Position numbers and translations under genes: made by a program. From Cytophagaceae bacterium (GTDB taxonomy: Bacteria; Bacteroidota; Bacteroidia; Cytophagales; Cytophagaceae): DNA of 64,000 nucleotides. This document shows positions 2,302-46,265 of the stretch, in pieces; the stretch's first letter is position 1; every line of letters starts with the position of its first letter. The stretch lies in NCBI GenBank assembly GCA_025455005.1, contig JALONH010000003.1, forward strand, positions 124,001 to 188,000, written 5' to 3'. The notes under the pieces are model-generated. The model searched no databases, was not told the origin of the DNA, and saw only the letters and a list, made by a program, of their open reading frames with translations.

Positions 2302-2334
2302 TTTGTTTGGGGATCTTTCGACTAGCTATCTTTA
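2302..2334 (+). promoter_or_regulatory. possible promoter of the three-gene secreted cassette
   Basis: TTTG (2302-2305), then 21 bp, then TATCTTTA (2327-2334), which differs from the TAnnTTTG consensus only in the last base. Transcription would begin near 2340, so the leader would consist almost entirely of the hairpin at 2354-2391. Confidence 0.4.
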
Positions 2335-2353
2335 TTCTCTACAGCAAAATGCT

Positions 2354-2391
2354 CAATAAGTGGTTAAGGGGTGTAACACACCCCCTTATTG
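2354..2391 (+). promoter_or_regulatory. leader hairpin just before the start codon
   Basis: Two nested arms pair perfectly: CAATAAG (2354-2360) with CTTATTG (2385-2391), and GGGGTGT (2368-2374) with ACACCCC (2378-2384) around an AAC loop. Only a 7-nt bulge (2361-2367) interrupts the 14 pairs. It ends 6 nt before the ATG at 2398 and has no T-run, so it is more likely a translational or RNA-stability element than a terminator. Confidence 0.6.
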
Positions 2392-2397
2392 AAGTAT

Positions 2398-5300
2398 ATG
2401 CAAAAACTTTTAATAGGATTTTATTTTCTAATGATCAGTGTCGTTCAGGCACAAGAATCGATTATTAGTATTCAGCAATATGTGGAACAAAATAATCGAC
2501 GAGAAGATCAATTATCGGCGGAAGATGCGAATGCATTACCTATTGGTGTCACCTTACATTCTACACCTTCTATCGAAATTCTAGTAAGGGATATCCAATT
2601 AACACCTACTCAATCTACCATTTCTATCAGTACTGTACTACCCATACCTATGACAGAGCAGGTAATGGCACTAGAAGCAGTAGATGTACCTTTGCAAAGT
2701 GGAGGGTATATAGAATCCAATACAAAATTATTTTTAAATGAACCCATTCATATTGTAATGGGTGAGAAAATGCGGTGTACGTTTACATCCGGAGTACAAG
2801 GGTGTTGTATTGAAATGGATTGTAATGGTCTTAAAAAAATTCGATTTAAAGGGACAATAGATTTTTGTAGAACAGTATTATTGCCTGAAAATAATTTGGG
2901 AGAAATTCTACCGGAACCCATTCGCGTAAAAGCGCATTTTGATATTATTGGTACATCATGGGATGATTTAATTACTACAATTACTATTTCACCTTTTCAA
3001 ATAGTAGGTATGCCGGATTGGGGATTTGAAGTGAAAGAAGCCGTGTTGGACAGAAGTGATAATCTCAATCCCAATGGAATAATTTTTCCAACAGGATACA
3101 CTGGTCCAACAGATTCCTTTTGGAAAGGGATATTTATTAAAAAAGTATCGGTACGATTACCGGAACTTTTTTCAAAAATGAATGGAAATACTGTTCCTGC
3201 AATACAATTAAATAATTTTATTATAGATCCCACAGGTGTATCCGGTAATATTCAATTAGCAGGATTGATTCCATTGAATACAACCAAAAGTTGGAGTATG
3301 AGTGTCGATACTTTAGAAATTGTATTACGATCGAATCGTATTATTAAAGGCACCTGTTCCGGATCGTTATTGATTCCCATTACTTCAAGTGACGATATTT
3401 TTTCTTATCAAGGTTGTATTGCAGAAAATAATAATTTTTTATTTAGAGTAAAACAAAAAAATAAAATTCAAATTCCATGTTGGTTGGCAAAAGCAGAAAT
3501 AGATTCTTCAAGTTCAGTATCGATTCATTATGTTGAAAAACAACTATTAATAAAATTACTCTTGAATGGAAGTTTATCTTTGAATACAACTAAACATAGT
3601 ATACCAACAAAAATAGTTAACTTAAATTTTCATAGTTTAATACTATCTAATACTGCACCGTATATAAGAGGTGGGTTTTTCTATGTTGATAAAATTACGG
3701 CTCAATTAAAAGGTTTTAATATCAGCATTCAAGATGTAGGTTTCATTACTAGATTAAATGAGACTATCTTAAAATTTAAGATTAAAATTCAATTTTGTAA
3801 TGTAAAAGATTTTGGATTTCAAGGGGAGGTAGGTTTGTTTTTTATATCAGAAACCTCAGATCGTTGGAAATTAAAGCAAATAACATTATCTGAAGTTAGT
3901 ATTGATATAGATAAAGGTATTTTTTCAGTTAAAGGACAAATAAAAGCACAACCCGATAAAGGGTTTGAAGGGCAAGTCCTATTAAGTGTATTCCCCGGTG
4001 TAAAAGTTGAAGCAAAGGCGGAGTTCTGTAAGTTAAATAATCATAATTATTGGTATGTTAATGCCAGCACTACGTTTAAAAAGGGAATCCCTATTTATCC
4101 TATTATAGGAATATATGGATTTTCAGGCGGAGTTTCATATGGAATGCGATTAGATACTGTCCTTCATTCAAATAATAAATGGAATTCCGAAAAAATATTT
4201 AAGTCTGATTCAACAGTGGGAATAGGAATTAGAGCAGGGATTTTAATAGGTAGTTTACCAATTCCTGAATTATACAATCTATCGGGAGAGTTATGTATTG
4301 AATTTGATAAGTCTTGGGGATTGAATAAAGCAATCCTATACGGTAAGTTAAATGTATTGCAGAATATTGATAAGTCATCAACCTCCTCTATTTATGGAAC
4401 TGTAATTTTAGAGTTTGATAATGTAAATAAATCCTTGCATGCAACGGCAGAAGTATTTATTAATTATACTCCTATACTTAAAGGTATAGGTAATAACAAT
4501 AGAGCCGGATACTTAACCTTACATATTGATTCTAAAGATTGGTATATACATATAGGTCATCCTAATGATAGGATAGGGGTTGAAGTATTAAGTCTAGCAA
4601 GGTTTGATGCATATTTGGTTGCAGGTTCAATTATACCGGAATTGCCGTCTCCAAGTCCACTTCTTCAGGAGATATTGGATATCGAGTCTCGATATCAAAC
4701 AAGCTCGGATTTATCAATTAGAAATGGTTCGGGTATAGGTTTTGGAGCCAGATGTAATATTCAAACAGGTAAAAAAAAGTGTCTTTTCTTTTATGGAGAA
4801 TTTAATGCTGGAATTGAATTTGATATTTTAATGAAAAACTATGGAAGTTCTACTCTATGCACAAACACGTCTAAACCTGTAGGTATAAATGGGTGGTACG
4901 CACAAGGAAAAATTGGGGCATTTGTTCAAGGAGAGATAGGATTGTTTATTGATCTTCCATTTTATAAAGGAGAGGCAGAAATATTAGAAATAGGTGCTGG
5001 AGTTTTATTAGAAGCTAAATTACCCAACCCTAGTTGGTTTTCAGGTACTTTAGGTGGATATTATTCAGTGTTTGGGGGTGTATTAGAAGGAGAAGTTAAG
5101 TTTAAATTAGAAATAGGTGAAGGCTGTGATTTTAGATCTTCACTTTTACAAAACAGAAAAAATATTATTAATTCTATAGACTGTAAAGGTGATATTACAA
5201 GTGTTTTGGTTGATGTAGACCCGGTTATACATTTTAATGTTCCGATTGATAAAGAGTTGAGTATATCCAATATGGATAGTCATGATGTTAAATTTAAAGT

Positions 5301-6375
5301 TGTTATCGACAGCTTTAAACTGTATTCTAATCAAGAGTCTGTTGATGTAGACTTTCTATGGAATGATAATAAAAATGAGTTAAAAATTAAATCTACTACT
5401 TTATTTAAAACGAATACTTTATATAAAGTGCACCTCGCAACTTCGATATATATTTATAACAATAATAATTGGGTAGTTTTTAATTCTAACATCATTGATG
5501 GAGATACTGTATTTCTCTTTAAGACAAGTCCTAAAACAGTTCAATTTTCTAAGAACTTGATAGCGTATTCTTATCCGGAAATCCATCAAAAATATTATTT
5601 AATAGATGAGCATCATCAAAATTATATAAAATTTAAAAAGCATCTGCCTTTATTTGATTCTTTACAATATTTGCAATTGTATATTCAACAAGATAAATCC
5701 TCGGATCAAAATCAAATTAATTTTACGTATATAAAAGACTCTTCTGTTTTTTATTTTGATTTACACGAACAATTAGCAGTAGATAAAAAATATACTCTAA
5801 GATTTATATATGAACACCATTCTGAATCTATAGATATTTTAGATATTTATTTTGAAACAGCCCTATATAATACGTTTGATAATTATATTAATAATTTATT
5901 TGTTAACTCTCCATATTTTGATGAAGGGAATCAGTATGTAGGGGGTACTAAAATTGTCTATCCCATCCGTTATTCAGAAATATTGAATCAATCAATGGTT
6001 GTAATGTCATTTGATATTTATCAAAATGAATGGTATAAAGCGTATTCTAAATGGTATGATTTTGCCAAGGAACTAAATTATGCATGTATTGATTGGAGAG
6101 TAGTAAATCATATAGAGCCACTTCAACGAGTATGTCTAATAAAGAATAATACAACAATCAATAATGTTATTTCCTATTATGTTTATTATGATGTATTACA
6201 GATTAAGTCTTTTATTTTACAATCGTACACTGATAACGAGGAAATATATAATTGGATATATGATAGTTTTACACCTATTAAAAAGGGGTTTTATAATATA
6301 GATATTTCGTATGTATTACCTGGAACAAATATTAAAACGACAAACATAAAACGAAAATGGCACGTCTCGTATTAA
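2398..6375 (+). CDS. very large exported protein of unknown family
   Basis: 1325 aa from the ATG at 2398; a TTG three codons upstream (2389) is disfavoured because it lies in the leader hairpin. Residues 1-19 form a signal peptide ending in VQAQ. The bulk is strand-rich, with recurring glycine-aromatic patterns such as IYGFSGGVSYGMRL and GWYAQGKIGAFVQGEIGLF. Near residues 935-1020 a stretch with VDVDPVIHFNVPIDKELS resembles a bacterial Ig-like (Big_5/SbsA) domain. No T9SS C-terminal domain is visible, so its final location (periplasm, outer membrane or surface) is unclear. Overlaps the next gene by 19 bp, implying co-translation. Extremely AT-rich. I do not recognise a named family. Confidence 0.85.
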   Translation: MQKLLIGFYFLMISVVQAQESIISIQQYVEQNNRREDQLSAEDANALPIGVTLHSTPSIEILVRDIQLTPTQSTISISTVLPIPMTEQVMALEAVDVPLQSGGYIESNTKLFLNEPIHIVMGEKMRCTFTSGVQGCCIEMDCNGLKKIRFKGTIDFCRTVLLPENNLGEILPEPIRVKAHFDIIGTSWDDLITTITISPFQIVGMPDWGFEVKEAVLDRSDNLNPNGIIFPTGYTGPTDSFWKGIFIKKVSVRLPELFSKMNGNTVPAIQLNNFIIDPTGVSGNIQLAGLIPLNTTKSWSMSVDTLEIVLRSNRIIKGTCSGSLLIPITSSDDIFSYQGCIAENNNFLFRVKQKNKIQIPCWLAKAEIDSSSSVSIHYVEKQLLIKLLLNGSLSLNTTKHSIPTKIVNLNFHSLILSNTAPYIRGGFFYVDKITAQLKGFNISIQDVGFITRLNETILKFKIKIQFCNVKDFGFQGEVGLFFISETSDRWKLKQITLSEVSIDIDKGIFSVKGQIKAQPDKGFEGQVLLSVFPGVKVEAKAEFCKLNNHNYWYVNASTTFKKGIPIYPIIGIYGFSGGVSYGMRLDTVLHSNNKWNSEKIFKSDSTVGIGIRAGILIGSLPIPELYNLSGELCIEFDKSWGLNKAILYGKLNVLQNIDKSSTSSIYGTVILEFDNVNKSLHATAEVFINYTPILKGIGNNNRAGYLTLHIDSKDWYIHIGHPNDRIGVEVLSLARFDAYLVAGSIIPELPSPSPLLQEILDIESRYQTSSDLSIRNGSGIGFGARCNIQTGKKKCLFFYGEFNAGIEFDILMKNYGSSTLCTNTSKPVGINGWYAQGKIGAFVQGEIGLFIDLPFYKGEAEILEIGAGVLLEAKLPNPSWFSGTLGGYYSVFGGVLEGEVKFKLEIGEGCDFRSSLLQNRKNIINSIDCKGDITSVLVDVDPVIHFNVPIDKELSISNMDSHDVKFKVVIDSFKLYSNQESVDVDFLWNDNKNELKIKSTTLFKTNTLYKVHLATSIYIYNNNNWVVFNSNIIDGDTVFLFKTSPKTVQFSKNLIAYSYPEIHQKYYLIDEHHQNYIKFKKHLPLFDSLQYLQLYIQQDKSSDQNQINFTYIKDSSVFYFDLHEQLAVDKKYTLRFIYEHHSESIDILDIYFETALYNTFDNYINNLFVNSPYFDEGNQYVGGTKIVYPIRYSEILNQSMVVMSFDIYQNEWYKAYSKWYDFAKELNYACIDWRVVNHIEPLQRVCLIKNNTTINNVISYYVYYDVLQIKSFILQSYTDNEEIYNWIYDSFTPIKKGFYNIDISYVLPGTNIKTTNIKRKWHVSY

Positions 6376-8258
6376 TACTATTTTTTTTGATTAACATTTA
6401 TTACTTATCAGCTGCACAGAAGCTACTTACTAAGTATTTTATTACAGATGACTCTGTATTTATAAAATGGTGTCCTAATGATTATAATCAATTTATATTG
6501 GCAAATAAGAAAGGATATAGGATAGAATTATACGATGTCTATAATGATAAAAATTTCAAAAGAGTAGAAAAAAGGATAGTTAAAACTATAAATCCATTTA
6601 CTTCGGAAGAGTGGGCACCTCTATCTAATGACACTTTTTCGATGATAGCAGCATATGCCATGTATAGAAAAAACATATCCAATAATTATATTCAACTTTA
6701 TCAAGAAAATAAACAATTGTTTGAATTAGCTATAATGGCATCGGATCAATCCATTTTAGCAGCAAATGGACTTGGATTATATTTTAGTATAGATAAATCT
6801 CAATCTATGTATAGTTTTTGTAAAATCTATATCCATCAATCAAAAGACACTTCGTGTATTTTTTTTGATAACCAAAACGGAAAATCGGTTATGTCTGAAA
6901 TAACCGATTATGATGTACGTTTATTTGGATCGAATAATTTAGATATTACTATAAATACTGTAGATTTAATATCGTATTACACTTCATTTGATATTGAGAT
7001 GTCGAATGATTCTATTCATTTTGAAAAAATAAATAACCATCCAATAGTCTTACAGAAATATACTACACAATACAGGGTTCCTATTTTATCAACTTGTAAT
7101 TATATTCGTATTAAACCTAAATCTTTCTTTTACAGAAGTACAAATTATTCAACCATTAAAAAAATTTGTTTACATTCTTGTGATACAAATAGAATAAGTA
7201 TAATTAACTATATAGATACTTCAGATGAAACACAACTTTTTGTTAACGGGAAATTAGATACATTACAAAATATATCCGTTTTATTCTCCGATGAACTTAA
7301 TTTTTCAAATCCTATCCCAACACCAATTACTATACTATCCGATTCTAGTTTATCCTACGCCAAAAAAACAACATCATACTATATTAAAATTAAATATTGT
7401 AATAAAGAATCTAATATATACTATATATTTTATCCCCTATCGTCTGCTGTACAAGACACTAATTGTACTATAAAGTTACGTTCTATCCATAGGGATACTT
7501 TAGTATTGAATTGGGATAAAAGTAAGAATTATAAGTTTGTAAATATATATTATAAATCCACTACTTCTGAATGGATTACAGTTAATCATACACCTATATC
7601 AGATACCTTTCATATATGGAATTCTATCCCTCTTTTTTCTGATTCTATTATGTTTGTTTTTCATTTTATGAATGAAAATTATTGTAAGGTTTATCAAAAA
7701 GTAATTTATTACCACATTAATCATTATGTAAAACCAATTCAAAGTGTTATTTATTCTTATGAACTGAAACAAGATTCTATTGTGCAGTTAAAGTATACCA
7801 ATACGAGTTCTGACTATTGCACTCAACGTTTAATACGAATTAATAATTCCGATACCACTGAAATTCTCTTGTCAAGAAATAGTTATGTGTTTTATGATAC
7901 ATTAATACACTCAGGGACATATTGTTATTCTATAAAGTCTATTGATAATCATCATAATTATTCTATTTCTACACCCATTTGTTTATACGTTAATAAATTG
8001 GAATTGGATAAGAAACCTATATTAAGAGCCCAATACTTTTTAGATTCCATTAGATTAACATGGAAGTTAGATGTACCTTTTAAATACATTCACATTTATA
8101 CTATTATTAATAACAGAAAAGTATGGTTGCTTTCATCTTCATATAAAACAGATCTTTATACATATATTATAAAAGAATTTAAGCCTACAATATTTTTTTG
8201 CTTCATAGAGGATTTTCAAGGTTTAATTAGTAAAGCATATTCCTTCAGTTATGAATAG
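6357..8258 (+). CDS. exported fibronectin type III-like protein
   Basis: 633 aa. The N-terminus MARLVLILFFLINIYYLSAA is a signal peptide. The C-terminal half reads as at least three FN3-like units, near residues 365-460, 465-550 and 555-633, each with the pattern strand, D-S-hydrophobic-x-L-x-W/Y, and later Y-C-Y-x-I or similar (for example GTYCYSIKSIDN and DSIRLTWKLDVP). The first 350 residues are not recognised. No T9SS sorting domain is seen. The gene overlaps both neighbours (19 bp and 8 bp), so the three products are probably made together and may form one complex. Same very AT-rich composition as its neighbours. Confidence 0.85.
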   Translation: MARLVLILFFLINIYYLSAAQKLLTKYFITDDSVFIKWCPNDYNQFILANKKGYRIELYDVYNDKNFKRVEKRIVKTINPFTSEEWAPLSNDTFSMIAAYAMYRKNISNNYIQLYQENKQLFELAIMASDQSILAANGLGLYFSIDKSQSMYSFCKIYIHQSKDTSCIFFDNQNGKSVMSEITDYDVRLFGSNNLDITINTVDLISYYTSFDIEMSNDSIHFEKINNHPIVLQKYTTQYRVPILSTCNYIRIKPKSFFYRSTNYSTIKKICLHSCDTNRISIINYIDTSDETQLFVNGKLDTLQNISVLFSDELNFSNPIPTPITILSDSSLSYAKKTTSYYIKIKYCNKESNIYYIFYPLSSAVQDTNCTIKLRSIHRDTLVLNWDKSKNYKFVNIYYKSTTSEWITVNHTPISDTFHIWNSIPLFSDSIMFVFHFMNENYCKVYQKVIYYHINHYVKPIQSVIYSYELKQDSIVQLKYTNTSSDYCTQRLIRINNSDTTEILLSRNSYVFYDTLIHSGTYCYSIKSIDNHHNYSISTPICLYVNKLELDKKPILRAQYFLDSIRLTWKLDVPFKYIHIYTIINNRKVWLLSSSYKTDLYTYIIKEFKPTIFFCFIEDFQGLISKAYSFSYE

Positions 8259-11200
8259 AATATTTACGGTTATTTTCTTTTTAATTTTGATTAGTACCTC
8301 TTTTGCTCAACCAATAAAAGTTATTATTCAATTTGTTTATGTATATCATCAATATGTATCTGAACGTGATAACTTGAGTGTTAATGTAGATAATAATGGT
8401 TATAATTTTAAGGATACAACTCAGTTTATAGACTATGGCGCATTTTATTCAAAATATACTCAGTATTCTAATGTTATAAATGAACAGTTTAACTATGATT
8501 ATTATGAAGTTATAAGAAATGATTTTACTCCCATTACTATTCAATTTTATGGATATACGGATAGATGTAAAGGAAATAATGGTCACTTTTATAAGTATAA
8601 TCCTAAATGTTATTGTGATTTTGGATTAAGATGTAGATCCCAAGACGATAATAATTTTGGGAGTGGTACCATTGCAATAAATTTTTGGGAGTTTAAGAAT
8701 GATGGTAGATTATCGTCTTATTATTACACAGATAACTTTTTACATGGATTTGCTATAAAGGTATTTTGGGAACCTATATTACCCAATTCTATTAATTTTA
8801 AAAATATTACTTCCACTTATTGTGGTAACGATAAAGTATTATATTCAATGAATTTTTCTAATAACATAACGAATAAGCTTACTGAACATGCTAAAGAAAA
8901 TATTAAAGTAGAAGTTTGTAAAATGAGATTAACCAATGGAGTTTGGAATGTTTTGGAAGTTTTATTCCGCCAGTTAAAAATTTCGGATTCTTTTTCAGTA
9001 TCAAACACTTCTACCCGAGAAGAGATATTTGTTTTAGGGTTTAGACTATCCTACAATGGGTATTACTCTTCCTATTTTATTCATCCCATTCCTATTACTA
9101 TTTTGCCCAATCCACCGGATTCACTATTACTCTCTGTACTTGATCCATTATGTTTTAATAGTGAGGATGGGCAAATTGTTATTCAACATATATCAGGTCT
9201 GTCAGATAATTATATAACTAGACTATATCGTGATTCTTTATTAATGAGTTCTTATATTTCAAATTATCCCTTTAATTTAAGTAATAGCACTTCTAATATT
9301 TATAACCTTAAAGGAGTTGGTTCCGGTATTTATGTTTTAAAAACCTACAATAATATAGGTAATAATATAGGTTGTTATAGAATTGATACAGTCGTTTTAC
9401 ATAATCCTACTCCATTAGTATTAGATACATTTTATATTTCAAATTATAATAATTACTCAATTCAATGTCCCGGATCGACTACCGGTTTTATATTTTCACG
9501 TGTTTCCGGTGGAACCGGTACTAAAAGAGTCTATATGGATTCTATCTTATACCATTTTGAGAATTCTCATTCTTTATTAGGTTTAAGAGAAGGCCAATAT
9601 CCCTATAAAATAGTGGATCAAAATAATTGTATGTTAATCGATACTATATTATCCTTAAATGCTCCTAATCCTTTACAATTTAATATTCAACTTAATCCTA
9701 TTGACTGTTTTAATTCAGCAAATGGCAGTATATCCTCCAAACCTATAGGTGGTCTTTCTCCATATTCATTCAATAATGGAATACCCGGACTACATTATAC
9801 TATAGACAATTTAGATTCCGGTGAGTATTCAATAACTATAAAAGACTTTAATAATTGTTATTTTGATACTAGTGTCGTTTTATTAAATCCTACTCCATTA
9901 ACTTTAAGTGTACAATCCATAAATCCTGCTACGTGTAATTATTCATCTGATGGTAGTGTACATTTATTTGTTCAAGGGGGGACTTCACCTTATACATTAA
10001 CTACCTTGCATAATGATACGTATACAGATTCTATTTACGTTAAAAATAATCTTTCCTCAGGAAACTATTCAACTTTTATAATGGATAGTCATCAATGTAA
10101 AGACACTATACTGTATACAATCACATCCTTATCCAATTTACAGTATTTAATTTATCCTCATCATGAAAAGTGTTCTACCGATAATTTTGGAACTGTTTCT
10201 TTTGAACTGTCATCCGGTATTCCTCCCTATACCACACTTTTGAATTCTATTATTACTCATGATTCAATACAGAACGTACCTATTGGTTGGAATTATTTTA
10301 TATTTACAGATGCTTTATATTGTGAATATATAGATTCTGTATTGATAGAAAATACTATTCCATTTTCTCTAGATAGTATACAAATTCTTTCGGAGAGTTG
10401 TAATAATACTTTTGATGGAGGTATTATGCCTTTCTTTTCAGGAGGTCACCTCCCATTTTCGTATTTTTTGAATTCTAAACCGATTGAAGGTGACTCCTTA
10501 ACCGAACTAACATCCGGTGGATATACTTTTTCTGTATCCGATACACATAACTGTCAAGTCGAAGAAAATATTTATATACCCCTTCAAAAAGATATTTCAT
10601 ATTCAAATCAAAAAACACATTATGTATGTAATGACAGTACATTTTTATTACGATATAAAAATGATTCCATAAATAGATATTTTGATATAGGACATCATTT
10701 TTATTTTAATAAAGATACGTTAATAACAATTCCTCAAGAATTATATCTTTATTCTACCTATTCAAATCTTTGTTTTAATATTGATACGTTACATTTTTTA
10801 TCCTCCTCTACCTCGGGTCCAGTACAATTATTTGTTTCAACAAATGTATATAAAGGTGACACTGTTGCCTTAATTGTCCTACACCCACAACTTATAGATT
10901 CTATAGCTATCGTATCGGATTTACAGTATCAATCTGATTTTCCTTATTATTATTTTAATGCCGATAGTAGTGGAGATTTCAATTTATACTATACGATATA
11001 TTCCGATAACTGTATAACCCATCATTATAAATCCTTACATGTTGACTTACTTCCTCAGTTTTCTTATTCTTTACCACAACTGGGTTATACGCTCATTCAA
11101 GATTTATCTGTTTTTCCAAACCCTTTTTCAAATTGTATTCAATATTCTTACAAGGTGAGCAATGATGCGATAGTTTTTGTAAACATCACAGATATGGTAG

Positions 11201-11340
11201 GTAATCTTTTTTTTGATACTATAAATGTTGGAAATCAGTTAAAAGGACAAATTGAAACTACATCCCTTCCTCCCGGATGTTATGTGTTAAATTTAATTAC
11301 TGATAGTGAAAGTATTAGGTTTAAACTAATCAAAGAGTAA
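8251..11340 (+). CDS. SprB-repeat surface protein with T9SS type A sorting domain
   Basis: 1029 aa. A signal peptide covers residues 1-20 (ends SFAQ). An unrecognised N-terminal region runs to about 285 and contains a Cys-rich patch near 105-128. About six SprB-like modules follow (near 290-385, 390-470, 475-547, 548-625, 626-700, 703-778), each with a Cys, a D/N-G turn and a GG.SPY.. core, for example NPIDCFNSANGSISSKPIGG. The C-terminal 80 residues (SVFPNPFSNCIQYSY, then SLPPGCYVLNL, ending FKLIKE) are a type A T9SS sorting domain. The protein is therefore expected on the cell surface. SprB itself is the gliding adhesin of Flavobacterium. Last gene of the cassette. Confidence 0.9.
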   Translation: MNRIFTVIFFLILISTSFAQPIKVIIQFVYVYHQYVSERDNLSVNVDNNGYNFKDTTQFIDYGAFYSKYTQYSNVINEQFNYDYYEVIRNDFTPITIQFYGYTDRCKGNNGHFYKYNPKCYCDFGLRCRSQDDNNFGSGTIAINFWEFKNDGRLSSYYYTDNFLHGFAIKVFWEPILPNSINFKNITSTYCGNDKVLYSMNFSNNITNKLTEHAKENIKVEVCKMRLTNGVWNVLEVLFRQLKISDSFSVSNTSTREEIFVLGFRLSYNGYYSSYFIHPIPITILPNPPDSLLLSVLDPLCFNSEDGQIVIQHISGLSDNYITRLYRDSLLMSSYISNYPFNLSNSTSNIYNLKGVGSGIYVLKTYNNIGNNIGCYRIDTVVLHNPTPLVLDTFYISNYNNYSIQCPGSTTGFIFSRVSGGTGTKRVYMDSILYHFENSHSLLGLREGQYPYKIVDQNNCMLIDTILSLNAPNPLQFNIQLNPIDCFNSANGSISSKPIGGLSPYSFNNGIPGLHYTIDNLDSGEYSITIKDFNNCYFDTSVVLLNPTPLTLSVQSINPATCNYSSDGSVHLFVQGGTSPYTLTTLHNDTYTDSIYVKNNLSSGNYSTFIMDSHQCKDTILYTITSLSNLQYLIYPHHEKCSTDNFGTVSFELSSGIPPYTTLLNSIITHDSIQNVPIGWNYFIFTDALYCEYIDSVLIENTIPFSLDSIQILSESCNNTFDGGIMPFFSGGHLPFSYFLNSKPIEGDSLTELTSGGYTFSVSDTHNCQVEENIYIPLQKDISYSNQKTHYVCNDSTFLLRYKNDSINRYFDIGHHFYFNKDTLITIPQELYLYSTYSNLCFNIDTLHFLSSSTSGPVQLFVSTNVYKGDTVALIVLHPQLIDSIAIVSDLQYQSDFPYYYFNADSSGDFNLYYTIYSDNCITHHYKSLHVDLLPQFSYSLPQLGYTLIQDLSVFPNPFSNCIQYSYKVSNDAIVFVNITDMVGNLFFDTINVGNQLKGQIETTSLPPGCYVLNLITDSESIRFKLIKE

Positions 11341-11377: not shown

Positions 11378-11459
11378 GTCCATATGGTGGAATTGGTAGA
11401 CACGCCATCTTGAGGGGGTGGTGCCGCAAGGTGTGGGAGTTCGAATCTCCCTATGGACA
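11378..11459 (+). tRNA. tRNA-Leu (anticodon GAG)
   Basis: The acceptor arms GTCCATA and TATGGAC pair perfectly, with discriminator A. The anticodon stem CCATC/GGTGG encloses TTGAGGG, giving GAG. A long variable arm (TGCCGCAAGGTG region) marks a class II tRNA, and the T-arm is GGGAG TTCGAAT CTCCC. CCA is not encoded. Confidence 0.96.
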
Positions 11460-11533
11460 CTCTTTCTTTTTAATCAAAACCCTCAAGCCCTTATCCGATT
11501 TGCCTACTGTATAAACGGATCTCCGCTACCGCC

Positions 11534-32005: not shown

Positions 32006-33019
32006 ATGATAGATTTTAATGGTAAAATAATTTTGATTACGGGAGGGACAGGAACATTTGGGGAGCATTTTGTATTATTTTTATTGGATCAATATCCTGA
32101 TATAAAAAAGATAAAAATTTTCTCACGAGATGAGTTTAAACAACATCAACTCAAAAAACGACTTTCTGAAAAAAGTATTCCAAAAGTACAATTTATTCTG
32201 GGTGATATTAGAGAAAGCGCTCCTTTGGTAACTGCTTGTAAAGGGGTCGACTATGTTTTACATACTGCTGCATTAAAACATGTAACATTCGGTGAAGAAA
32301 ATCCATCTGAATTTATTAAAACCAATATAGTAGGATCTGAAAATATAATTCAGGCTGCTTCTGTCGCGGGTGTAAAAAAAGTAATTGCTATGTCTACAGA
32401 TAAAGCTGTGGCTCCACTTAGTTTATATGGTGCTACAAAATTATGTGCGGACAAATTATTCGTATCTGCAAGTCAGCATTCTACCGATACTATTTTTTCC
32501 ATAGTTCGATTTGGTAATTTATTAGGATCGAGGGGTTCCGTTTTGTCTTACTTTGAATCACAATCGAAACAAGGAATAATACACATTACAGATGAACGGA
32601 TGACACGATTTCATATCGATAATAATGAATTAATACAACTGGTGTTATATGCTTTTGAAAATGCGCTTGGTGGTGAGATTTTTATTCCAAAACTTCCTTC
32701 CTATAAGGTGATTGATCTAGCCAAGTCGGTAGCTCCTTCAGCATCATTTCTCGTTACCGGTGTTCGTCCGGGAGAAAAAATTCATGAGGAACTGATTCAT
32801 GTTGCTGATTCAATAAACGTTATAGAAAGTGATAAATATTTTATCGTTTTACCATCAGGAAAGAAAGAAAAAAAGGAAAACTATACTTCTAAAACGCCCC
32901 TTAAATTTCGTTCAGAATTTTCGTATAGCTCAGATAAGAATGAAGATTGGTTAAGTAGCGAAGACTTTAAAGAAATTTTACAATCGGAGTTTTATAAAGA
33001 AAAAGAAATTAAATTATAA
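32006..33019 (+). CDS. FlaA1/PseB-like UDP-GlcNAc 4,6-dehydratase (SDR)
   Basis: 337 aa. Extended SDR with the NAD motif GGTGTFGEHFV (cf. GGTGSFG in PseB), IFSRDEFKQHQL, GDIRE, TAALKHV, STDKAVAPLSLYGATKL and VRFGNLLGSRGSV. These are hallmarks of the FlaA1/PseB/CapD family, which inverts or retains C5 during 4,6-dehydration of UDP-GlcNAc. The usual SDR Tyr is replaced by the family Lys (T-D-K). C-terminal GVRPGEKIHEELI is also diagnostic. First gene of the glycan run. The pseudaminic acid genes that would follow PseB are absent, so its product may feed another sugar in this glycan. Confidence 0.85.
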   Translation: MIDFNGKIILITGGTGTFGEHFVLFLLDQYPDIKKIKIFSRDEFKQHQLKKRLSEKSIPKVQFILGDIRESAPLVTACKGVDYVLHTAALKHVTFGEENPSEFIKTNIVGSENIIQAASVAGVKKVIAMSTDKAVAPLSLYGATKLCADKLFVSASQHSTDTIFSIVRFGNLLGSRGSVLSYFESQSKQGIIHITDERMTRFHIDNNELIQLVLYAFENALGGEIFIPKLPSYKVIDLAKSVAPSASFLVTGVRPGEKIHEELIHVADSINVIESDKYFIVLPSGKKEKKENYTSKTPLKFRSEFSYSSDKNEDWLSSEDFKEILQSEFYKEKEIKL

Positions 33020-33031
33020 TTATTGGTCATT

Positions 33032-34030
33032 GTGCATTTAGAAAATAAAAAAATATTAGTTACCGGTGCGGATGGATTTATAGGGAGCCACTTAGTAGAA
33101 ACACTAGTCTTACAAGGCTACTCTGTTAAGGCATTCGTATACTATAATTCCTTTAATTCTTGGGGATGGTTAGATACCCTACCTAAGGAAATATTGAGTA
33201 AAGTAGAAATATTTTCCGGAAATATCACAGATCCTAATGGTGTGCGTACCGCTGTAAAAGGAGTAGATATTATTTTCCATTTAGCAGCACTTATAGCTAT
33301 TCCGTATAGCTATCATTCTCCGGATAGCTATGTAGATACCAATATCAAGGGAACACTTAATGTACTTCAAGCGGCTAAAGAATTGGGAGTAGAAAAAGTA
33401 TTAGTGACTTCTACATCTGAAGTCTATGGTACGGCCTTATATGTTCCAATCGATGAAAAGCATCCCAAACAAGGTCAATCGCCCTATTCAGCTACTAAAA
33501 TTGGAGCCGATTTTTTGAGTGATTCCTTCTTTAGAAGTTTTAATTTACCGGTTACTATTGTACGCCCCTTCAATACATTTGGTCCTAGGCAATCGGCCCG
33601 AGCTGTTATACCTACTATCATAACTCAATTATTAGCCGGTAAAGAGGAGATAAAATTAGGTGCGTTACATCCTACACGTGATTTATTGTATGTAAAAGAT
33701 ACCGTAAATGGATTTATACAAATTGCGTTATCGGATAAGACTATAGGCGAAGAAATAAATATTGCGACCCAATCTGAAATTTCAATTGGTGAATTGGCAA
33801 ATTTAATCATCCAAAAAATAAATCCGAAAGCTAGAGTAATAACAGATGATATTCGATTAAGGCCGGCAAAAAGTGAAGTGGAGCGTTTATATGGCAGCAA
33901 CGAAAAAATACATACTCTTACTAATTGGAAACAACAATACAGCTTCACGGATGCTATAAGTGAAACTATAGAATGGTTTAAGCTGTCTTCTAATTTAAGT
34001 CAATACAAAACAGACATTTACAATGTTTGA
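33032..34030 (+). CDS. legB: nucleotide-sugar 4,6-dehydratase LegB
   Basis: About 332 aa from the GTG at 33032. An in-frame TTG at 33023 is the alternative; the GTG gives the canonical N-terminus a few residues before KKILVTGADGFIGSHLVE. The features YNSFNSWGWLDTLP, LAALIAIPYSYHSPDSYVD, STSEVYGTALYVP, SPYSATKIGADFL (Tyr-x-x-x-Lys) and RPFNTFGPRQSARAVIPT are those of LegB. LegB forms the 4-keto-6-deoxy intermediate from GDP-GlcNAc (Campylobacter) or UDP-GlcNAc (other species). Overlaps the LegC gene by 8 bp. Confidence 0.92.
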   Translation: MHLENKKILVTGADGFIGSHLVETLVLQGYSVKAFVYYNSFNSWGWLDTLPKEILSKVEIFSGNITDPNGVRTAVKGVDIIFHLAALIAIPYSYHSPDSYVDTNIKGTLNVLQAAKELGVEKVLVTSTSEVYGTALYVPIDEKHPKQGQSPYSATKIGADFLSDSFFRSFNLPVTIVRPFNTFGPRQSARAVIPTIITQLLAGKEEIKLGALHPTRDLLYVKDTVNGFIQIALSDKTIGEEINIATQSEISIGELANLIIQKINPKARVITDDIRLRPAKSEVERLYGSNEKIHTLTNWKQQYSFTDAISETIEWFKLSSNLSQYKTDIYNV

Positions 34031-35174
34031 TGAAATACTCACTTTTATTAGAACGATTAATGAAAAGGATGATTTTATTCCTTTGCATGAACCGGTCTTT
34101 CATGGAAATGAAAAAAAGTATTTAAATGAATGCATTGATAGCGGTTTCGTTTCCTCTGTGGGAGCTTTTGTGAATGAATTTGAAAAAGCAATTGCAAACT
34201 ATACCGGCGCTAAAAGAGCCGTAGTTGTGGTTAATGGAACTCAAGCCTTACATTTAGCTTGCGTTGTTGCCGGTATTCAACGCGGTGATGAAGTAATTAC
34301 ACAAGCCCTATCGTTTATCGCAACAGCTAATGCAATATCATACACTGGTGCGACATGCGTTTTTGTAGATGTAGACAAAGAAACACTTGGAATGAGTCCT
34401 TCATCCTTAGAGAATTTTCTACTTCAACATACGCAACTAAAGAATGGCATTTGTACGAATAAACATACAGGAAAACAAATCAAAGCCTGTATTCCTATGC
34501 ATACATTCGGTCATCCAACTAAAATAGATGACATCAAAGTTATATGTGATCGCCATAATATTATACTGATCGAAGATGCAGCAGAAAGCTTAGGGTCTTG
34601 GTATAAGGGGAAACATACGGGGAGGTTTGGTACTATAGGAGTGTTTAGCTTTAATGGAAATAAAATAATTACTACAGGTGGTGGCGGTGCTTTAATCACA
34701 GATGATGAATCACTGGCTGATAAGGCTAAACATTTGAGTACAACGGCTAAAATTCCGCATCCTTGGCAATATGAACATGATGCTGTCGGGTATAATTATC
34801 GCATGCCAAATCTGAATGCTGCCTTGGGTTTAGCTCAGTTGGAGAGCATTCAAGAATTATTAAATCAAAAAAGATCTTTATTTCAACTATATAAAACCTT
34901 TTTTAATAGAAAAAAAATTCAACTTATAGAAGAACCACTTAATTGTTCATCAAACTATTGGTTACAAGCTATTATTCTTAACAATAAAATTGAACGGGAT
35001 AATTTTCTAAATTATTCTAATGAAAACGGTGTTATGACTCGGCCTATTTGGAGTTTGCTTAATAAATCTACTATGTATAAAAATAGTTTCTATACAACGT
35101 TAGAAAATTCTGAATGGCTTGAAGATCGAGTTGTCAATATACCAAGTAGCAGTAAAATGTATAAAACAATATAA
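34023..35174 (+). CDS. legC: LegC-type aminotransferase (PLP, DegT/DnrJ family)
   Basis: 383 aa. It puts an amino group on C4 of the keto sugar made by LegB. Seen: HEPVFHGNEKKYLNECIDSG at the N-terminus, VNGTQALHLAC, ALSFIATANAISYTGA, IEDAAESLGSWYKGKHTG and FSFNGNKIITTGGGG with the presumed PLP lysine K214. The GNKIITTGGGG form is that of the LegC subgroup. The start overlaps legB; 11 bp separate it from the acetyltransferase gene, which fits the order of enzymatic steps. Confidence 0.92.
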   Translation: MFDEILTFIRTINEKDDFIPLHEPVFHGNEKKYLNECIDSGFVSSVGAFVNEFEKAIANYTGAKRAVVVVNGTQALHLACVVAGIQRGDEVITQALSFIATANAISYTGATCVFVDVDKETLGMSPSSLENFLLQHTQLKNGICTNKHTGKQIKACIPMHTFGHPTKIDDIKVICDRHNIILIEDAAESLGSWYKGKHTGRFGTIGVFSFNGNKIITTGGGGALITDDESLADKAKHLSTTAKIPHPWQYEHDAVGYNYRMPNLNAALGLAQLESIQELLNQKRSLFQLYKTFFNRKKIQLIEEPLNCSSNYWLQAIILNNKIERDNFLNYSNENGVMTRPIWSLLNKSTMYKNSFYTTLENSEWLEDRVVNIPSSSKMYKTI

Positions 35175-35185
35175 TTTCTATTGAT

Positions 35186-35824
35186 TTGAAAAACTTAGTT
35201 CTGATAGGAGGAGGAGGACATTGCAAGTCTTGTATTGAAGTAGTGCATTCTACAACAGCTTATAAAATTATAGGAATTGTAGATTCCACTTTACCGGTTG
35301 GGACTCACATTATGGGATATCCGGTATTAGGAGATGATACGTTAATCCCATCGTTGATTCAACAGGACTATGTTTTTTTAATTTCAATAGGGAAGTTGAA
35401 TACCTTCTCTCCAAGACAAAAAATATTTGACACCATAAAAGGACTTGGGGGGGCATTTGCCACAATAATAGCTTCTACAGCCTATGTTTCAAGCCATGCT
35501 ACTATTGGAGAAGGATCTATCATTATGCACGGTGCCTTTTTAAATGTAGATGCTGTGATAGAACAAAATTGTATTATAAATACACGGGCCATAATTGAAC
35601 ACGATACACGTGTAAAATCACACAGTCATATCTCTACGCATGTGGTGTTGAACGGAGGAGTCGAAATTGGATCGGATTGTTTTATCGGAAGCGGTAGTGT
35701 CGTCTTGCATAAAACTAAAATAGCTGATAATGTTATCGTAGGGTCACATTCTACTGTTGTGAAAGATCTATTGGAAGCAACAACATATGTTGGAACTCCC
35801 GCTAAACCTATTATAAATAATTAA
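35186..35824 (+). CDS. NeuD/PglD-type sugar acetyltransferase (LegH role)
   Basis: 212 aa, TTG start. The first 75 residues form a Rossmann-like half (LVLIGGGGHCKSCIEVV), followed by a left-handed beta-helix of hexapeptide repeats (IIASTAYVSSHATIGEGSI, VDAVIEQNCIIN, VEIGSDCFIGSG, IADNVIVGSHS). H-x-G/D near IEHDTRV is the catalytic His region. Such enzymes N-acetylate the 4-amino sugar; the position between legC and legI makes this the likely LegH step. Acetyl-CoA as donor follows from the family. Confidence 0.88.
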   Translation: MKNLVLIGGGGHCKSCIEVVHSTTAYKIIGIVDSTLPVGTHIMGYPVLGDDTLIPSLIQQDYVFLISIGKLNTFSPRQKIFDTIKGLGGAFATIIASTAYVSSHATIGEGSIIMHGAFLNVDAVIEQNCIINTRAIIEHDTRVKSHSHISTHVVLNGGVEIGSDCFIGSGSVVLHKTKIADNVIVGSHSTVVKDLLEATTYVGTPAKPIINN

Positions 35825-35825
35825 G

Positions 35826-36842
35826 ATGGAACCTGTATTAATCATAGCGGAAGCCGGAGTTAATCATAATGGAAGTATAGCATTAGCTGAAAAGTTAATA
35901 GACGCGGCTTTTAATGCAGGTGTAGATATAGTAAAATTTCAAACCTTCAAAGCATCTCAGCTTGTTACTCAAAACGCATCGAAGGCCTCTTATCAATTGA
36001 CTACTACTTCTGCTGAAGAATCTCAATATGAAATGTTAAAGAAATTGGAGTTAAACGTAGAGATGCATCAACATTTAATTGAGTATTGTCAACGTAAGCC
36101 GATTCAATTTTTATCTACTCCATTTGATGTAGAGAGTATTGATTTATTAAAAAGATTTGGCATAAATATAGGAAAAATACCCTCCGGTGAAATAACAAAC
36201 TTGCCTTACTTAGTCTATATGGCCAAAAATTTTGACCGTATTATTTTGTCTACCGGAATGTGCACCTTGCGAGAGGTAAAAGAGGCCTTAGATGTATTGC
36301 TAATCAATGGTGTAAAAAAAGAAAATATTACAGTATTGCATTGTAATACGGAATATCCTACACCTATGAAGGATGTTCATTTACATGCCATGTTAACATT
36401 GAAAAATTCCTTAGGTGTAGAAATTGGATACTCCGACCATACATTAGGAATAGAAATTCCGATTGCAGCAACTGCATTGGGTGCTCGTGTTATCGAAAAA
36501 CATTTTACTCTCGATAAAAGCATGGAAGGGCCGGATCATAAAGCTTCTTTAGAACCAAAAGAATTAAAAGAGATGGTTAATGCGATTCGCAATATAGAAC
36601 TAGCTTTGGGCAATGCAGATAAAACGCCATCCTCTTCCGAACTCAAAAACATTGTCATAGCGCGTAAAAGTATTCACCTTAAACACGATGTTTCTAAGGA
36701 TCATATATTATCAGCAGATGATTTAATTATGAAACGCCCGGGGGACGGAATTAGCCCAATGGTTTGGGAAAAGGTAATTGGACAAAAGACAAATCGTCCA
36801 CTTTCAGCTGATACTAAATTAAAATGGGAGGATTTACAATGA
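35826..36842 (+). CDS. legI: N-acylneuraminate/N,N'-diacetyllegionaminate synthase
   Basis: 338 aa. It condenses a 6-carbon N-acetyl sugar with phosphoenolpyruvate to a 9-carbon nonulosonate. The N-terminal TIM barrel (1-245) has IAEAGVNHNGSIALAEKLID, VKFQTFKASQLV, FLSTPFDVESIDLL, GKIPSGEITNLPYL, ILSTGMCTLREVKEAL and GYSDHTLG. The C-terminal SAF (antifreeze-like) domain is about 275-338 (ARKSIHL, RPGDGISP). The surrounding genes favour legionaminate over sialate. The stop codon overlaps the next start (ATGA). Confidence 0.93.
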   Translation: MEPVLIIAEAGVNHNGSIALAEKLIDAAFNAGVDIVKFQTFKASQLVTQNASKASYQLTTTSAEESQYEMLKKLELNVEMHQHLIEYCQRKPIQFLSTPFDVESIDLLKRFGINIGKIPSGEITNLPYLVYMAKNFDRIILSTGMCTLREVKEALDVLLINGVKKENITVLHCNTEYPTPMKDVHLHAMLTLKNSLGVEIGYSDHTLGIEIPIAATALGARVIEKHFTLDKSMEGPDHKASLEPKELKEMVNAIRNIELALGNADKTPSSSELKNIVIARKSIHLKHDVSKDHILSADDLIMKRPGDGISPMVWEKVIGQKTNRPLSADTKLKWEDLQ

Positions 36843-37936
36843 ATGTAGCCGTTTTAACCAGTTCTAGAGCTGAATATGGTATTTATTACCCGTTACTAAA
36901 GCGATTACAAGAAGACGACTATTTTAATTTAGAAATTATTGCCTTCGGTACACATCTCTCCAAAGATCATGGCCATACCATAGACTTTATTTTGTCCGAT
37001 GGTTTTGAAGTAAATCATAGATTATCTACAATTCCACAAGGCGATACGTCAAAGCACATAAGTTCTTCAATAGGAAATACCATTGATTTATTCTCTTCAT
37101 TCTGGTCGGAACATTCCTTTGATTTAATATTTGCATTGGGCGATCGATATGAAATGTTTGCAGCTGTTACAGCTGCATTTCCCTTCAATAAGAAAATAGC
37201 CCATATTTCAGGAGGTGAAACAACCCTAGGAGCGATAGATAATGCTTTTCGACACGCTATTTCGTTGATGTCCTCCTATCATTTCGCTTCTACAGAAATC
37301 TATAAAAACAGAATTATTCAAGTAATAGGTACAGATAAAAATGTATTTAATGTTGGGGCTTTAAATATTGAGAATTTTATTCGTCAGAAGTACTATACGC
37401 TAGAGGAGTTTTATACACATTTTAAAATTGATTTATCTAAGCCAAGTATACTCATCACCTTTCATCCGGAAACGGTTGCGCTCGAAAAAAATATTTCCTA
37501 TACAGAAGAATTGATTAAAGCTTTGGAATATTGTAGTCGATATCAATTGATTATAACAATGCCTAATTCTGATACCATGGGAAATGTAATTCGAAAATTG
37601 TTACATCAATTTATAGTCACACATCCTAACGCTATAGGTATTGAAAGTTTTGGTATGATAGGTTATATGACGTGTATGAAGTATTGTACCATGATGTTAG
37701 GGAATACATCCAGTGGTTTTGTAGAAGCAGCCTTTTTTCCGAAATATGTAATTAACATAGGAGATCGCCAAAAAGGACGAATACAGACTCCCAATATTTT
37801 GAATGTACCGGTTGAAAAAGATGCTATATTACAAGCCGTGCAACAAGTAGAAACTTCGGCCCCTCCTGAAAGAGTGGAAGTATATGGGAAAGGTGATACA
37901 GCTGAAAAAATTATAGAAATTATAAAACAACAATAA
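36839..37936 (+). CDS. legG: hydrolysing UDP-sugar 2-epimerase, LegG/NeuC type
   Basis: About 365 aa from the ATG at 36839, chosen because it forms an ATGA overlap with legI and starts the protein at the conserved strand VAVLTSSRAEYGIYYPLLK; an ATG at 36824 would add five residues. It releases the nucleotide and epimerises C2. Motifs: LGDRYEMFAAV, HISGGETTLGAIDNAFRHAI, FHPETVAL and MLGNTSSGFVEAAFF. In the legionaminate pathway this step precedes LegI, although the gene lies after it. Confidence 0.92.
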   Translation: MNVAVLTSSRAEYGIYYPLLKRLQEDDYFNLEIIAFGTHLSKDHGHTIDFILSDGFEVNHRLSTIPQGDTSKHISSSIGNTIDLFSSFWSEHSFDLIFALGDRYEMFAAVTAAFPFNKKIAHISGGETTLGAIDNAFRHAISLMSSYHFASTEIYKNRIIQVIGTDKNVFNVGALNIENFIRQKYYTLEEFYTHFKIDLSKPSILITFHPETVALEKNISYTEELIKALEYCSRYQLIITMPNSDTMGNVIRKLLHQFIVTHPNAIGIESFGMIGYMTCMKYCTMMLGNTSSGFVEAAFFPKYVINIGDRQKGRIQTPNILNVPVEKDAILQAVQQVETSAPPERVEVYGKGDTAEKIIEIIKQQ

Positions 37937-37949
37937 AATAGTAAATGAT

Positions 37950-38933
37950 ATGAATACAGTTGTTATTGTTGGTGCAGGTAATATTGGAAGTAGACATTTA
38001 CAAGCATTTATAAATTCGACATTATCAATTCAATTATATGTAGTTGACCCATCCGATGCAGCACTTCAAGCAGCATCCTTACTTTGGACCACTTCAGGTG
38101 GTGATGGTCATACAACGATAAAACCCGTCTTTGTTGACTCTTTTAATGCTTTACCTGATCATTTGGATGTTGTGATTATTGCCACGAACTCAAAAATCAG
38201 AAAAGAAGTATATGAGAGTATAGCATTAGGTCGAACGATTAAACATGTTGTTTTTGAAAAATTCCTATTTCAATGTTTGTCAGATTATACTTCGGTTGCA
38301 GAACAATTAAAACAAAATAATAGTACAGGATGGGTCAATTGCCCGCGCAGAATGTATCCGGCATATTCACTGGTGAAAGAAAAATTAAAATATGAATTGT
38401 CTTTTGATTGCAGAGTAATTGGATCGAATTGGGGTTTAGGTTGTAATAGCATTCATTTTTTAGATTTATTTTCCTATTTATCCGGCAAGTCCGATTTTTT
38501 TACCTCCTCCGCTTTGTTAGATAGTACTATTCAACTTTCTAAGAGAGATGGATATATTGAATTTACCGGTACAGTAGTAGGAAAGGATATAGATAACAAT
38601 GTCTTTGCTTTTTCGTCTGTACAAAAGGATCAGGTTCCTATTACTATTACATTGTTGACTCCCAACTATATTATTAAAATAGAAGAGAAGGGGTCGAATA
38701 GTTCTATCCATATTATTTCTACAGACAGTAAAGAATCAGAAGTAATTACTTTCGCAATGCCCTATCAATCTCAATTATCTCATTTATTCGTTGAGTCATT
38801 GTTGCAAACTAATAAATGTGCTTTGAGTACCTATACTGAATCTAGTAACTTACATATAAGTTTATTGAACGCTTTCATCGAACGTTTACAAACTACCACT
38901 CAAGACACTATTACATCATGTCCCATAACATAG
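37950..38933 (+). CDS. Gfo/Idh/MocA family oxidoreductase (1 of 3)
   Basis: 327 aa. The dinucleotide fold starts at VVIVGAGNIGSRHLQAF and continues with VVIIATNSKIRKEVY and VFEKFLFQCLSDY (the E-K-x motif). The C-terminal domain carries GWVNCPRRMYPAYSLV. The motif positions fit the NAD(P)-dependent sugar oxidoreductases, but the residues usually seen as H-D in the catalytic pair appear as NSIHFLDLFSY. Substrate unknown. Overlaps the next oxidoreductase gene by 16 bp, so the two are co-translated. In several bacterial nonulosonate loci such genes accompany PtmE and PtmA homologues. Confidence 0.8.
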   Translation: MNTVVIVGAGNIGSRHLQAFINSTLSIQLYVVDPSDAALQAASLLWTTSGGDGHTTIKPVFVDSFNALPDHLDVVIIATNSKIRKEVYESIALGRTIKHVVFEKFLFQCLSDYTSVAEQLKQNNSTGWVNCPRRMYPAYSLVKEKLKYELSFDCRVIGSNWGLGCNSIHFLDLFSYLSGKSDFFTSSALLDSTIQLSKRDGYIEFTGTVVGKDIDNNVFAFSSVQKDQVPITITLLTPNYIIKIEEKGSNSSIHIISTDSKESEVITFAMPYQSQLSHLFVESLLQTNKCALSTYTESSNLHISLLNAFIERLQTTTQDTITSCPIT

Positions 38934-39868: not shown

Positions 39869-40350
39869 TGGGACCACTGTTTAGCATTTGCATACCTACT
39901 TATAATTCGGGAGCATTAGTACAGTATGCTATTGAGTCTGCTTTGAATCAGAATTTTAATGATTATGAAATCTTAATTGTAGATGATTGTTCTTCAGATA
40001 CAACGTTTGAAGAAGTAACGAAGTTTGCTACTTATGATAAAATTAGAATAGTTAAAAACGATATAAATTTAGGGCTGACAGCCAATTGGGAAAGATGTTT
40101 GCATTTAGCTAATGGGAAATATATTTCTTTTCTTCACCCCGATGATGAATGTGAGCCTACGTTTCTATCTTCTATTTATACAATTTTAACAGAAAACGAT
40201 TCTATTGGAATAGTAGCAGTAGATAACCAAAACGGTAAAACGAACGAAATCAAATCCGGTTTATTATCATATAATAGTTTTATTTCTACTTTATTTACTT
40301 TTAAGTATGCAACGGCTCCATCTCAATGTGTATTTGTAAAAGTTTATTAA
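39868..40350 (+). pseudogene. truncated family 2 glycosyltransferase (N-terminal half only)
   Basis: 160 aa. The N-terminal GT-A domain is intact: FSICIPTYNSGALVQYAIES, YEILIVDDCSSDTT, IVKNDINLGLTANWERCLHL and FLHPDDECEP with the metal-binding Asp pair. The frame stops at KVY after APSQCVFVK, before the acceptor-binding half that normally brings such proteins to about 280-330 aa. Only 19 bp separate the stop from the next start, so the missing half is gone rather than frameshifted. Probably inactive, but a short functional protein cannot be excluded. Confidence 0.65.
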
Positions 40351-40369
40351 CCTGTTCTAGAATTCACGT

Positions 40370-41416: not shown

Positions 41417-41424
41417 TCAGTCGA

Positions 41425-43806: not shown

Positions 43807-43818
43807 TTTATATGTACC

Positions 43819-44703: not shown

Positions 44704-44727
44704 TGCAATTAAAACAAAACGTACAGT

Positions 44728-45531: not shown

Positions 45532-45538
45532 AGAAATA

Positions 45539-46261: not shown

Positions 46262-46265
46262 TACC

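What the first reader, a model, noticed from the sequence alone, without database searches (positions are those of the whole stretch)
2302..11340. Unrecognised three-gene cassette for large exported proteins
Three genes (1325, 633 and 1029 aa) overlap by 19 and 8 bp, all begin with signal peptides, and all are visibly more AT-rich than the flanking genes. Only the third has a T9SS sorting domain. The first is a strand-rich protein with glycine/aromatic repeats and an Ig-like region, the second is FN3-like, and the third has SprB-like repeats. The size order and coupling suggest one surface assembly. I know no named system with this layout.
Basis: partly seen in the sequence, partly recalled or inferred. 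Interest (0 to 1): 0.65.

Follow-up and report, generated by a model that had tools for sequence, protein, structure and literature searches.

The report
Orphan surface module of TANFOR toxin loci
These three genes are a real and widely conserved unit of cell-surface proteins that, in other Bacteroidota and at a second site in this same genome, sits beside a poorly understood family of toxin genes; here the unit stands alone without any toxin, and its first protein may be the missing outer-membrane part of that toxin system.

Summary
In detail: three overlapping signal-peptide ORFs (1325, 633, 1029 aa), AT-rich, and only the third ends in a T9SS type A sorting domain. The trio is not unique. 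Among 94 gene-1 relatives with room downstream, 82 have a gene-2 relative within three genes. Gene 1 and gene 2 share 27 of 28 genomes in a 98-genome set (p about 1e-21). Of 41 complete third genes, 35 end in a type A CTD and 33 carry SprB repeats. The trio is part of a larger locus that the literature has only half described, the TANFOR polymorphic-toxin neighbourhood (Jana 2020). The fullest loci read gene1-gene2-gene3-(outer-membrane barrel)-TANFOR protein-small ORF; some TANFOR proteins are fused to gene 1. 27 of 28 gene-1 genomes have TANFOR. PT-HINT, an AHH nuclease and Imm49 occur in these loci, Imm49 in this genome's own second copy. The window copy is an orphan: no TANFOR, barrel, toxin or immunity gene in 64 kb. 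Gene 2 is a row of FN3 domains. Gene 1 has no family name; its model has an 18-strand, amphipathic, barrel-like region plus Ig domains. Best reading: surface/outer-membrane module of TANFOR loci. That gene 1 is a dedicated conduit is possible but unproven.

The parts
2302..2397 (+). Upstream region with a loose Bacteroidota-type promoter match (TTTG...TATCTTTA at 2302-2334)
   Evidence: Pattern match only; not evidence of function
2398..6375 (+). Gene 1 (g1), 1325 aa: signal peptide, N-terminal beta-rich region, barrel-like region (about residues 506-910), Ig/CopC-like and FN3-like domains (about 920-1155), conserved C-terminus with YxLPG motif
   Evidence: family in 28/98 relatives and 26/247 phylum genomes; AlphaFold2 model pLDDT 79, pTM 0.43, fold search, amphipathy
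6357..8258 (+). Gene 2 (g2), 633 aa: signal peptide and tandem FN3-like domains, the first with a helical insert; most diverged member of its family
   Evidence: keeps 43% of near-invariant family residues, the lowest of 31 compared
8251..11340 (+). Gene 3 (g3), 1029 aa: signal peptide, SprB repeats, C-terminal T9SS type A sorting domain (residues about 954-1029)
   Evidence: same architecture in most loci

Best explanation
The trio is the surface/outer-membrane module of TANFOR-type polymorphic toxin loci of Bacteroidota, present here as a stand-alone (orphan) copy. SHOWN: conserved gene order, co-occurrence of g1/g2/g3 homologues, linkage to TANFOR, PT-HINT, nuclease and immunity genes elsewhere, a T9SS sorting signal on g3, a T9SS translocon gene in the genome. 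INFERRED: all three proteins are exported by Sec; g3 crosses the outer membrane through the T9SS (type A signal, PorV route) and is fixed to or released from the surface as a repeat adhesin; g1 sits in or on the outer membrane as a barrel-like platform with Ig tails; g2 is an extended FN3 stalk that joins the other two. In complete loci this platform holds or passes the TANFOR protein, which carries a toxin or is encoded next to one, towards a target cell, while small neighbouring ORFs give immunity. In the window the payload is missing, so this copy either serves TANFOR proteins encoded elsewhere in the genome (contigs C2, C26, C28) or works only as an adhesion complex.
For: g2 follows g1 within three genes in 82 of 94 loci, directly in 73. 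g1 and g2 share 27 of 28 genomes each, Fisher p 8e-22. Third genes: 35/41 type A CTD, 33/41 SprB. TANFOR is in 27 of 28 g1 genomes (p 3e-17) and within 25 kb of 31 of 41 g1 loci. TANFOR is fused N-terminally to g1 in at least 13 proteins. Full order g1-g2-g3-barrel-TANFOR-small ORF in G012, G004, G079, G007. PT-HINT in trio loci L051, L173, L062, L196, and with an AHH nuclease in L170. This genome's other g1-g2 pair lies in a barrel-TANFOR-934 aa-Imm49-g1-g2 locus. SprA in own genome and in 25/25 g1-positive genomes spread over the phylum. A published survey found SprB, FN3 (COG3401) and CTD enriched around TANFOR genes (PMC7073777).
Against: No TANFOR, barrel, toxin or immunity gene lies in the window or in the 7.5 kb before it, so a toxin role of this copy is by analogy. 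Neither g1 nor g2 has a known T9SS signal, so how they would reach the surface is not explained. The window g2 has lost more than half of the near-invariant residues, which may mean a changed or lost function. The TANFOR profile used for the strong co-occurrence was built partly from TANFOR proteins near trio loci, so it is tuned to them; the independent NCBIfam model gives a weaker link (10 of 13 TANFOR genomes have g1, p 1e-4). No experiment shows TANFOR export by any route.
Confidence: 0.6

Rival explanations
1. A general surface adhesion complex: g3 is a T9SS-anchored repeat adhesin, g1 and g2 are its scaffold, and TANFOR toxins are only one of several proteins that use it. The window copy is then a normal, complete member.
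For: SprB, PKD, FN3 and beta-helix content of third genes; the window copy has intact frames without a toxin; G018:C8 is another trio on a longer contig without TANFOR on it.
Against: Of g1 loci on long contigs almost all have TANFOR nearby, and TANFOR-g1 fusions point to a joint function.
Confidence: 0.25
2. A decaying paralogue: the trio was left behind after the toxin, immunity and barrel genes were lost, and is drifting.
For: Orphan state; lower GC than flanks; window g2 is the most diverged g2 of 31 compared.
Against: Three intact, overlapping frames over 9 kb at 29% GC; g1 keeps 71% of near-invariant residues, within the range of other intact relatives; the T9SS signal of g3 is intact.
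Confidence: 0.12
3. Gliding-motility adhesin operon of the SprB/RemA type, with g1 and g2 as accessory parts.
For: SprB repeats and T9SS signal on g3.
Against: The signal is type A, not the type B of SprB, and no SprF-like shuttle gene is adjacent; a published swap shows that type A signals give static anchoring or release, not SprB-like movement (PMC12618676).
Confidence: 0.03

Closest known systems
TANFOR polymorphic toxins of Bacteroidetes (Jana, Salomon and Bosis 2020, PMC7073777; TIGR02542)
   Same: Same neighbourhood: FN3, SprB and T9SS type A CTD genes next to TANFOR genes, PT-HINT or nuclease toxins and Imm49-type immunity; g1 homologues are in some cases part of TANFOR proteins.
   Different: The window trio has no TANFOR domain, toxin or immunity gene. 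g1 as a family, its fixed pairing with g2, and the outer-membrane barrel gene (U1) are not described in the parts of the paper that were read.
T9SS type A cargo adhesins such as RemA of Flavobacterium johnsoniae
   Same: Sec signal, repeat region and TIGR04183 sorting domain on g3.
   Different: g3 is encoded with two partners that lack any sorting domain; no lectin domain was found.
SprB of Flavobacterium johnsoniae
   Same: SprB repeats.
   Different: SprB has a type B signal and an adjacent SprF shuttle; g3 has a type A signal and no shuttle gene next to it.
Outer-membrane ushers, LptD and large porins (structure only)
   Same: g1 model residues 486-890 align to OccD2 (Z 13.6), PapC usher (Z 10.7), BtuB, BamA and LptD; Ig-like domains follow, as in ushers.
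   Different: rmsd is 12-16 A over 240-300 residues and TM-scores are near 0.1, so this is a shared arrangement of strands at most; no sequence similarity to any solved structure.

Membership tests
TANFOR polymorphic toxin | N-terminal TANFOR domain in the protein | tested here: not met
   No hit in the window with TIGR02542 or a wider TANFOR profile; own-genome hits are on C2, C26 and C28 only
TANFOR polymorphic toxin | C-terminal toxin domain in the protein or next gene, with immunity gene | tested here: not met
   Pfam and NCBIfam on g1-g3 and three neighbours show none
TANFOR-locus surface module (g1-g2-g3, defined here) | g1, g2 and a type A CTD/SprB gene adjacent in this order | tested here: met
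TANFOR-locus surface module (g1-g2-g3, defined here) | TANFOR gene within 25 kb (frequent, not universal) | tested here: not met
   None on contig C19; present at 31 of 41 g1 loci
T9SS type A cargo (g3 only) | TIGR04183 sorting domain at the C-terminus | tested here: met
   E 5.3e-9, 35.9 bits against cut-off 23
T9SS type A cargo (g3 only) | T9SS translocon SprA in the genome | tested here: met
   G000:C31, 2584 bits
T9SS type A cargo (g1 and g2) | Type A or type B sorting domain | tested here: not met
   No match in NCBIfam; none with a local type A CTD profile
SprB-type gliding adhesin | Type B CTD and adjacent SprF-like gene | tested here: not met
   g3 has a type A CTD; g3 is followed by tRNA-Leu and an NFACT-domain gene
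Outer-membrane beta-barrel (g1 region 506-910) | Closed membrane-spanning barrel | tested here: inconclusive
   18 strands, strong two-face pattern (3.1 against 1.8-1.9 hydropathy units elsewhere) and barrel-like matches, but pTM is 0.43 and coordinates could not be inspected
FN3 tandem protein (g2) | FN3 folds in series | tested here: met
   Model matches FN3 tandems, e.g. 7y6e Z 13.1 and 3mtr Z 11.9 at rmsd 2.0 over 90 residues; homologues hit PF00041

The most novel reading that the evidence does not exclude
g1 is a dedicated outer-membrane conduit (an 18-strand barrel with Ig tails) that, with the barrel U1, the FN3 protein g2 and the T9SS-exported adhesin g3, forms an unrecognised apparatus that exports or delivers TANFOR toxins, instead of these toxins being T9SS cargo themselves. 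Fusion of TANFOR to the front of g1 would then be a single-chain version of the same machine.
Probability: 0.2. Interest if true: 0.85.

Novelty: new variant of a known kind. Interest (0 to 1): 0.6.

Why it matters
TANFOR toxins have been known since 2020, but how they leave the cell is open: no sorting signal has been described on them and T9SS export is only a hypothesis. A conserved partner set in about a tenth of sampled Bacteroidota, including a large unnamed family with a barrel-like model, gives concrete genes to delete and makes that question testable. The orphan copy in the window shows that the partner set can also exist without a payload nearby, which bears on whether it is a toxin device or a general surface platform.

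Tried and rejected
Single-protein scan of genome contigs with P0001 found nothing because the window copy is too diverged; an alignment of closer relatives worked. No g1 relative in IMG/VR or phage records, so a phage origin has no support. A horizontally acquired island was considered because of the low GC and two flanking tRNA genes (tRNA-Lys 1538-1611, tRNA-Leu 11378-11460), but no direct repeat of 13 or more bases to the tRNA-Leu region was found and no integrase was seen near it, and cassettes elsewhere are not AT-rich. The idea that the window trio is clearly decaying was weakened when relatives found without the conserved-motif filter were used for comparison: g1 is within the family range, only g2 is an outlier. 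PDB sequence search with the g1 profile found no match, and with the U1 profile only chance matches. BFVD fold matches for g1 are low-TM Ig or fibre proteins and were not used. T9SS co-occurrence within the order is not informative, as 94 of 98 genomes have SprA. Small ORFs next to the trios of the closest relatives gave no known immunity family.

Full report
What is there. Three overlapping plus-strand ORFs lie at 2398-6375 (g1, 1325 aa), 6357-8258 (g2, 633 aa) and 8251-11340 (g3, 1029 aa), with overlaps of 19 and 8 bases. All start with a signal peptide by inspection. Only g3 has a T9SS type A sorting domain (35.9 bits, cut-off 23) and SprB repeats (39.6 bits, cut-off 28). g1 has no curated match; its homologues give a borderline Big_5 Ig-like hit. 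g2 has none, but homologues hit fn3 and its model is a row of FN3 domains. GC is 26-31%, below both flanks.

The trio is conserved. g1 has relatives in 28 of 98 related genomes and 26 of 247 genomes drawn across the phylum, often in two or more copies. A motif scan of named genomes found loci in Cytophagales, Chitinophaga, Saprospiraceae, Bacteroidales and Flavobacteriales. Over 109 distinct g1 genes, 94 have more than 2.5 kb of sequence downstream; g2 is within three genes in 82 of them and directly next in 73, mostly overlapping or a few bases apart. In the 98 genomes g1 and full-length g2 coincide in 27 of 28 (p 8e-22). The gene after g2 is usually large (about 900 to over 3400 aa); of 41 with a complete end, 35 have the type A CTD and 33 SprB repeats.

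The wider locus. A literature search led to Jana et al. 2020 (PMC7073777), who found SprB, FN3, PKD and CTD domains enriched around TANFOR polymorphic toxin genes. With TIGR02542, TANFOR lies in the same ORF as g1 in G086, G046 and G038 and near the trio in several other genomes. A wider TANFOR profile, built here, finds TANFOR in 33 of 98 genomes, which include 27 of the 28 with g1 (p 3e-17), and within 25 kb of 31 of 41 g1 loci; most of the ten exceptions are on short contigs. That profile was built partly from TANFOR proteins found near trios, so the figure is tuned to them; the NCBIfam model alone gives p 1e-4. At least 13 proteins fuse TANFOR to the front of g1. Where enough flank is held, the order is g1-g2-g3-U1-TANFOR-small ORF (G012, G004, G079, G007). 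U1 is a protein of about 570 aa with alternating strands and, in 16 of 25 cases, a terminal F, as in outer-membrane barrels. Payload evidence: PT-HINT in L051, L173, L062 and the Persicobacter plasmid locus L196, PT-HINT plus AHH nuclease in L170, and a deaminase-domain gene in a Bergeyella plasmid locus. In the 98 genomes PT-HINT occurs in nine, and in four of these a match lies near a g1.

The window's own genome. It has a second g1-g2 pair on contig C2, in the order U1 - TANFOR (1063 aa, with FN3) - 934 aa - Imm49 (E 1e-14) - 125 aa - g1 - g2. Two more TANFOR proteins are on C26 and C28, and a U1 with a g2-like gene is on C27. The window contig C19 has no TANFOR. The window copy is therefore an orphan trio. 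Its g1 is about as diverged as other intact relatives, but its g2 keeps only 43% of near-invariant residues, the lowest of 31.

What g1 might be. The model of residues 21-1215 (pLDDT 79, pTM 0.43, 58 sequences) is almost all strand. Model residues 486-890 form 18 strands of seven or more residues, of mean length 13, with a marked hydrophobic/polar alternation (3.1 hydropathy units, against 1.8-1.9 in the other regions). Their best structural matches are outer-membrane barrels: OccD2 Z 13.6 (rmsd 13.8 A, 281 residues), maltoporin, PapC usher, BtuB, BamA, LptD. The large rmsd and TM-scores near 0.1 mean that barrel closure is not shown. Two Ig/FN3-like domains follow (CopC Z 10.7, rmsd 2.7 A over 90 residues).

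Mechanism. Shown: co-conservation, gene order, linkage to TANFOR and toxin/immunity genes, a sorting signal on g3, and SprA in the genome and in 25 of 25 g1-positive genomes across the phylum. From the literature: type A signals use PorV and give static anchoring or release (PMC12618676). Inferred: g3 is a surface adhesin, g2 a stalk, g1 an outer-membrane-associated platform, and together they display or pass a TANFOR protein. For the window copy, lacking payload, either it serves TANFOR proteins from other loci or it is an adhesion complex only. g1 and g2 have no known outer-membrane export signal, which is the main gap.

Verdict. Real, conserved, and a so far undescribed part of a partly described system. 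It is not a TANFOR toxin itself (defining domain tested and absent). I rate it a new variant of a known kind, with moderate to high interest because the export route of TANFOR toxins is unknown and these genes are the natural candidates. Literature coverage is limited to open-access papers, so a description in a subscription journal or preprint cannot be excluded.

Noticed in passing
1538-1611 and 11378-11460: tRNA-Lys lies upstream and tRNA-Leu directly downstream of the trio; with the low GC this looks like a possible insertion hot spot, but no flanking repeat of 13 or more bases and no integrase was seen.
   Followed up: partly
L205 9558-18811 and L033 6026-11484 (G000:C2:130000-162000): A full TANFOR locus in the same genome: U1, TANFOR 1063 aa, 934 aa with weak TPM domain, Imm49, g1, g2. 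Upstream, three CTD-profile ORFs (766, 613, 303 aa) may be a broken third gene.
   Followed up: partly
L166 5729-10726, G000:C28:37620-38000, L167 1611-8805: Scattered parts in the same genome: lone TANFOR proteins on C26 and C28, and on C27 a CTD ORF, U1, g2-like gene and a sulfatase.
   Followed up: no
98 related genomes: NCBIfam TIGR02542 finds TANFOR in 13 of 98 genomes, a profile from trio loci finds it in 33 of 98, so the published family is probably much larger than counted.
   Followed up: partly
A9 (U1 family), e.g. L084:8077-9837: Unnamed family of about 570 aa, many members ending in F, likely outer-membrane barrel, next to TANFOR or g1 in many loci; no Pfam or PDB match.
   Followed up: partly
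L196 (Persicobacter plasmid), L197 (Bergeyella porcorum plasmid): The locus occurs on plasmids; the Bergeyella copy has a split g1, TANFOR-like ORFs and a deaminase-domain gene.
   Followed up: partly
1680-2192: 170-aa ORF upstream of the trio, apparently membrane-anchored, without a convincing family match; whether it belongs to the cassette is unknown.
   Followed up: no
32006-47423: Run of co-directional genes not examined here.
   Followed up: no
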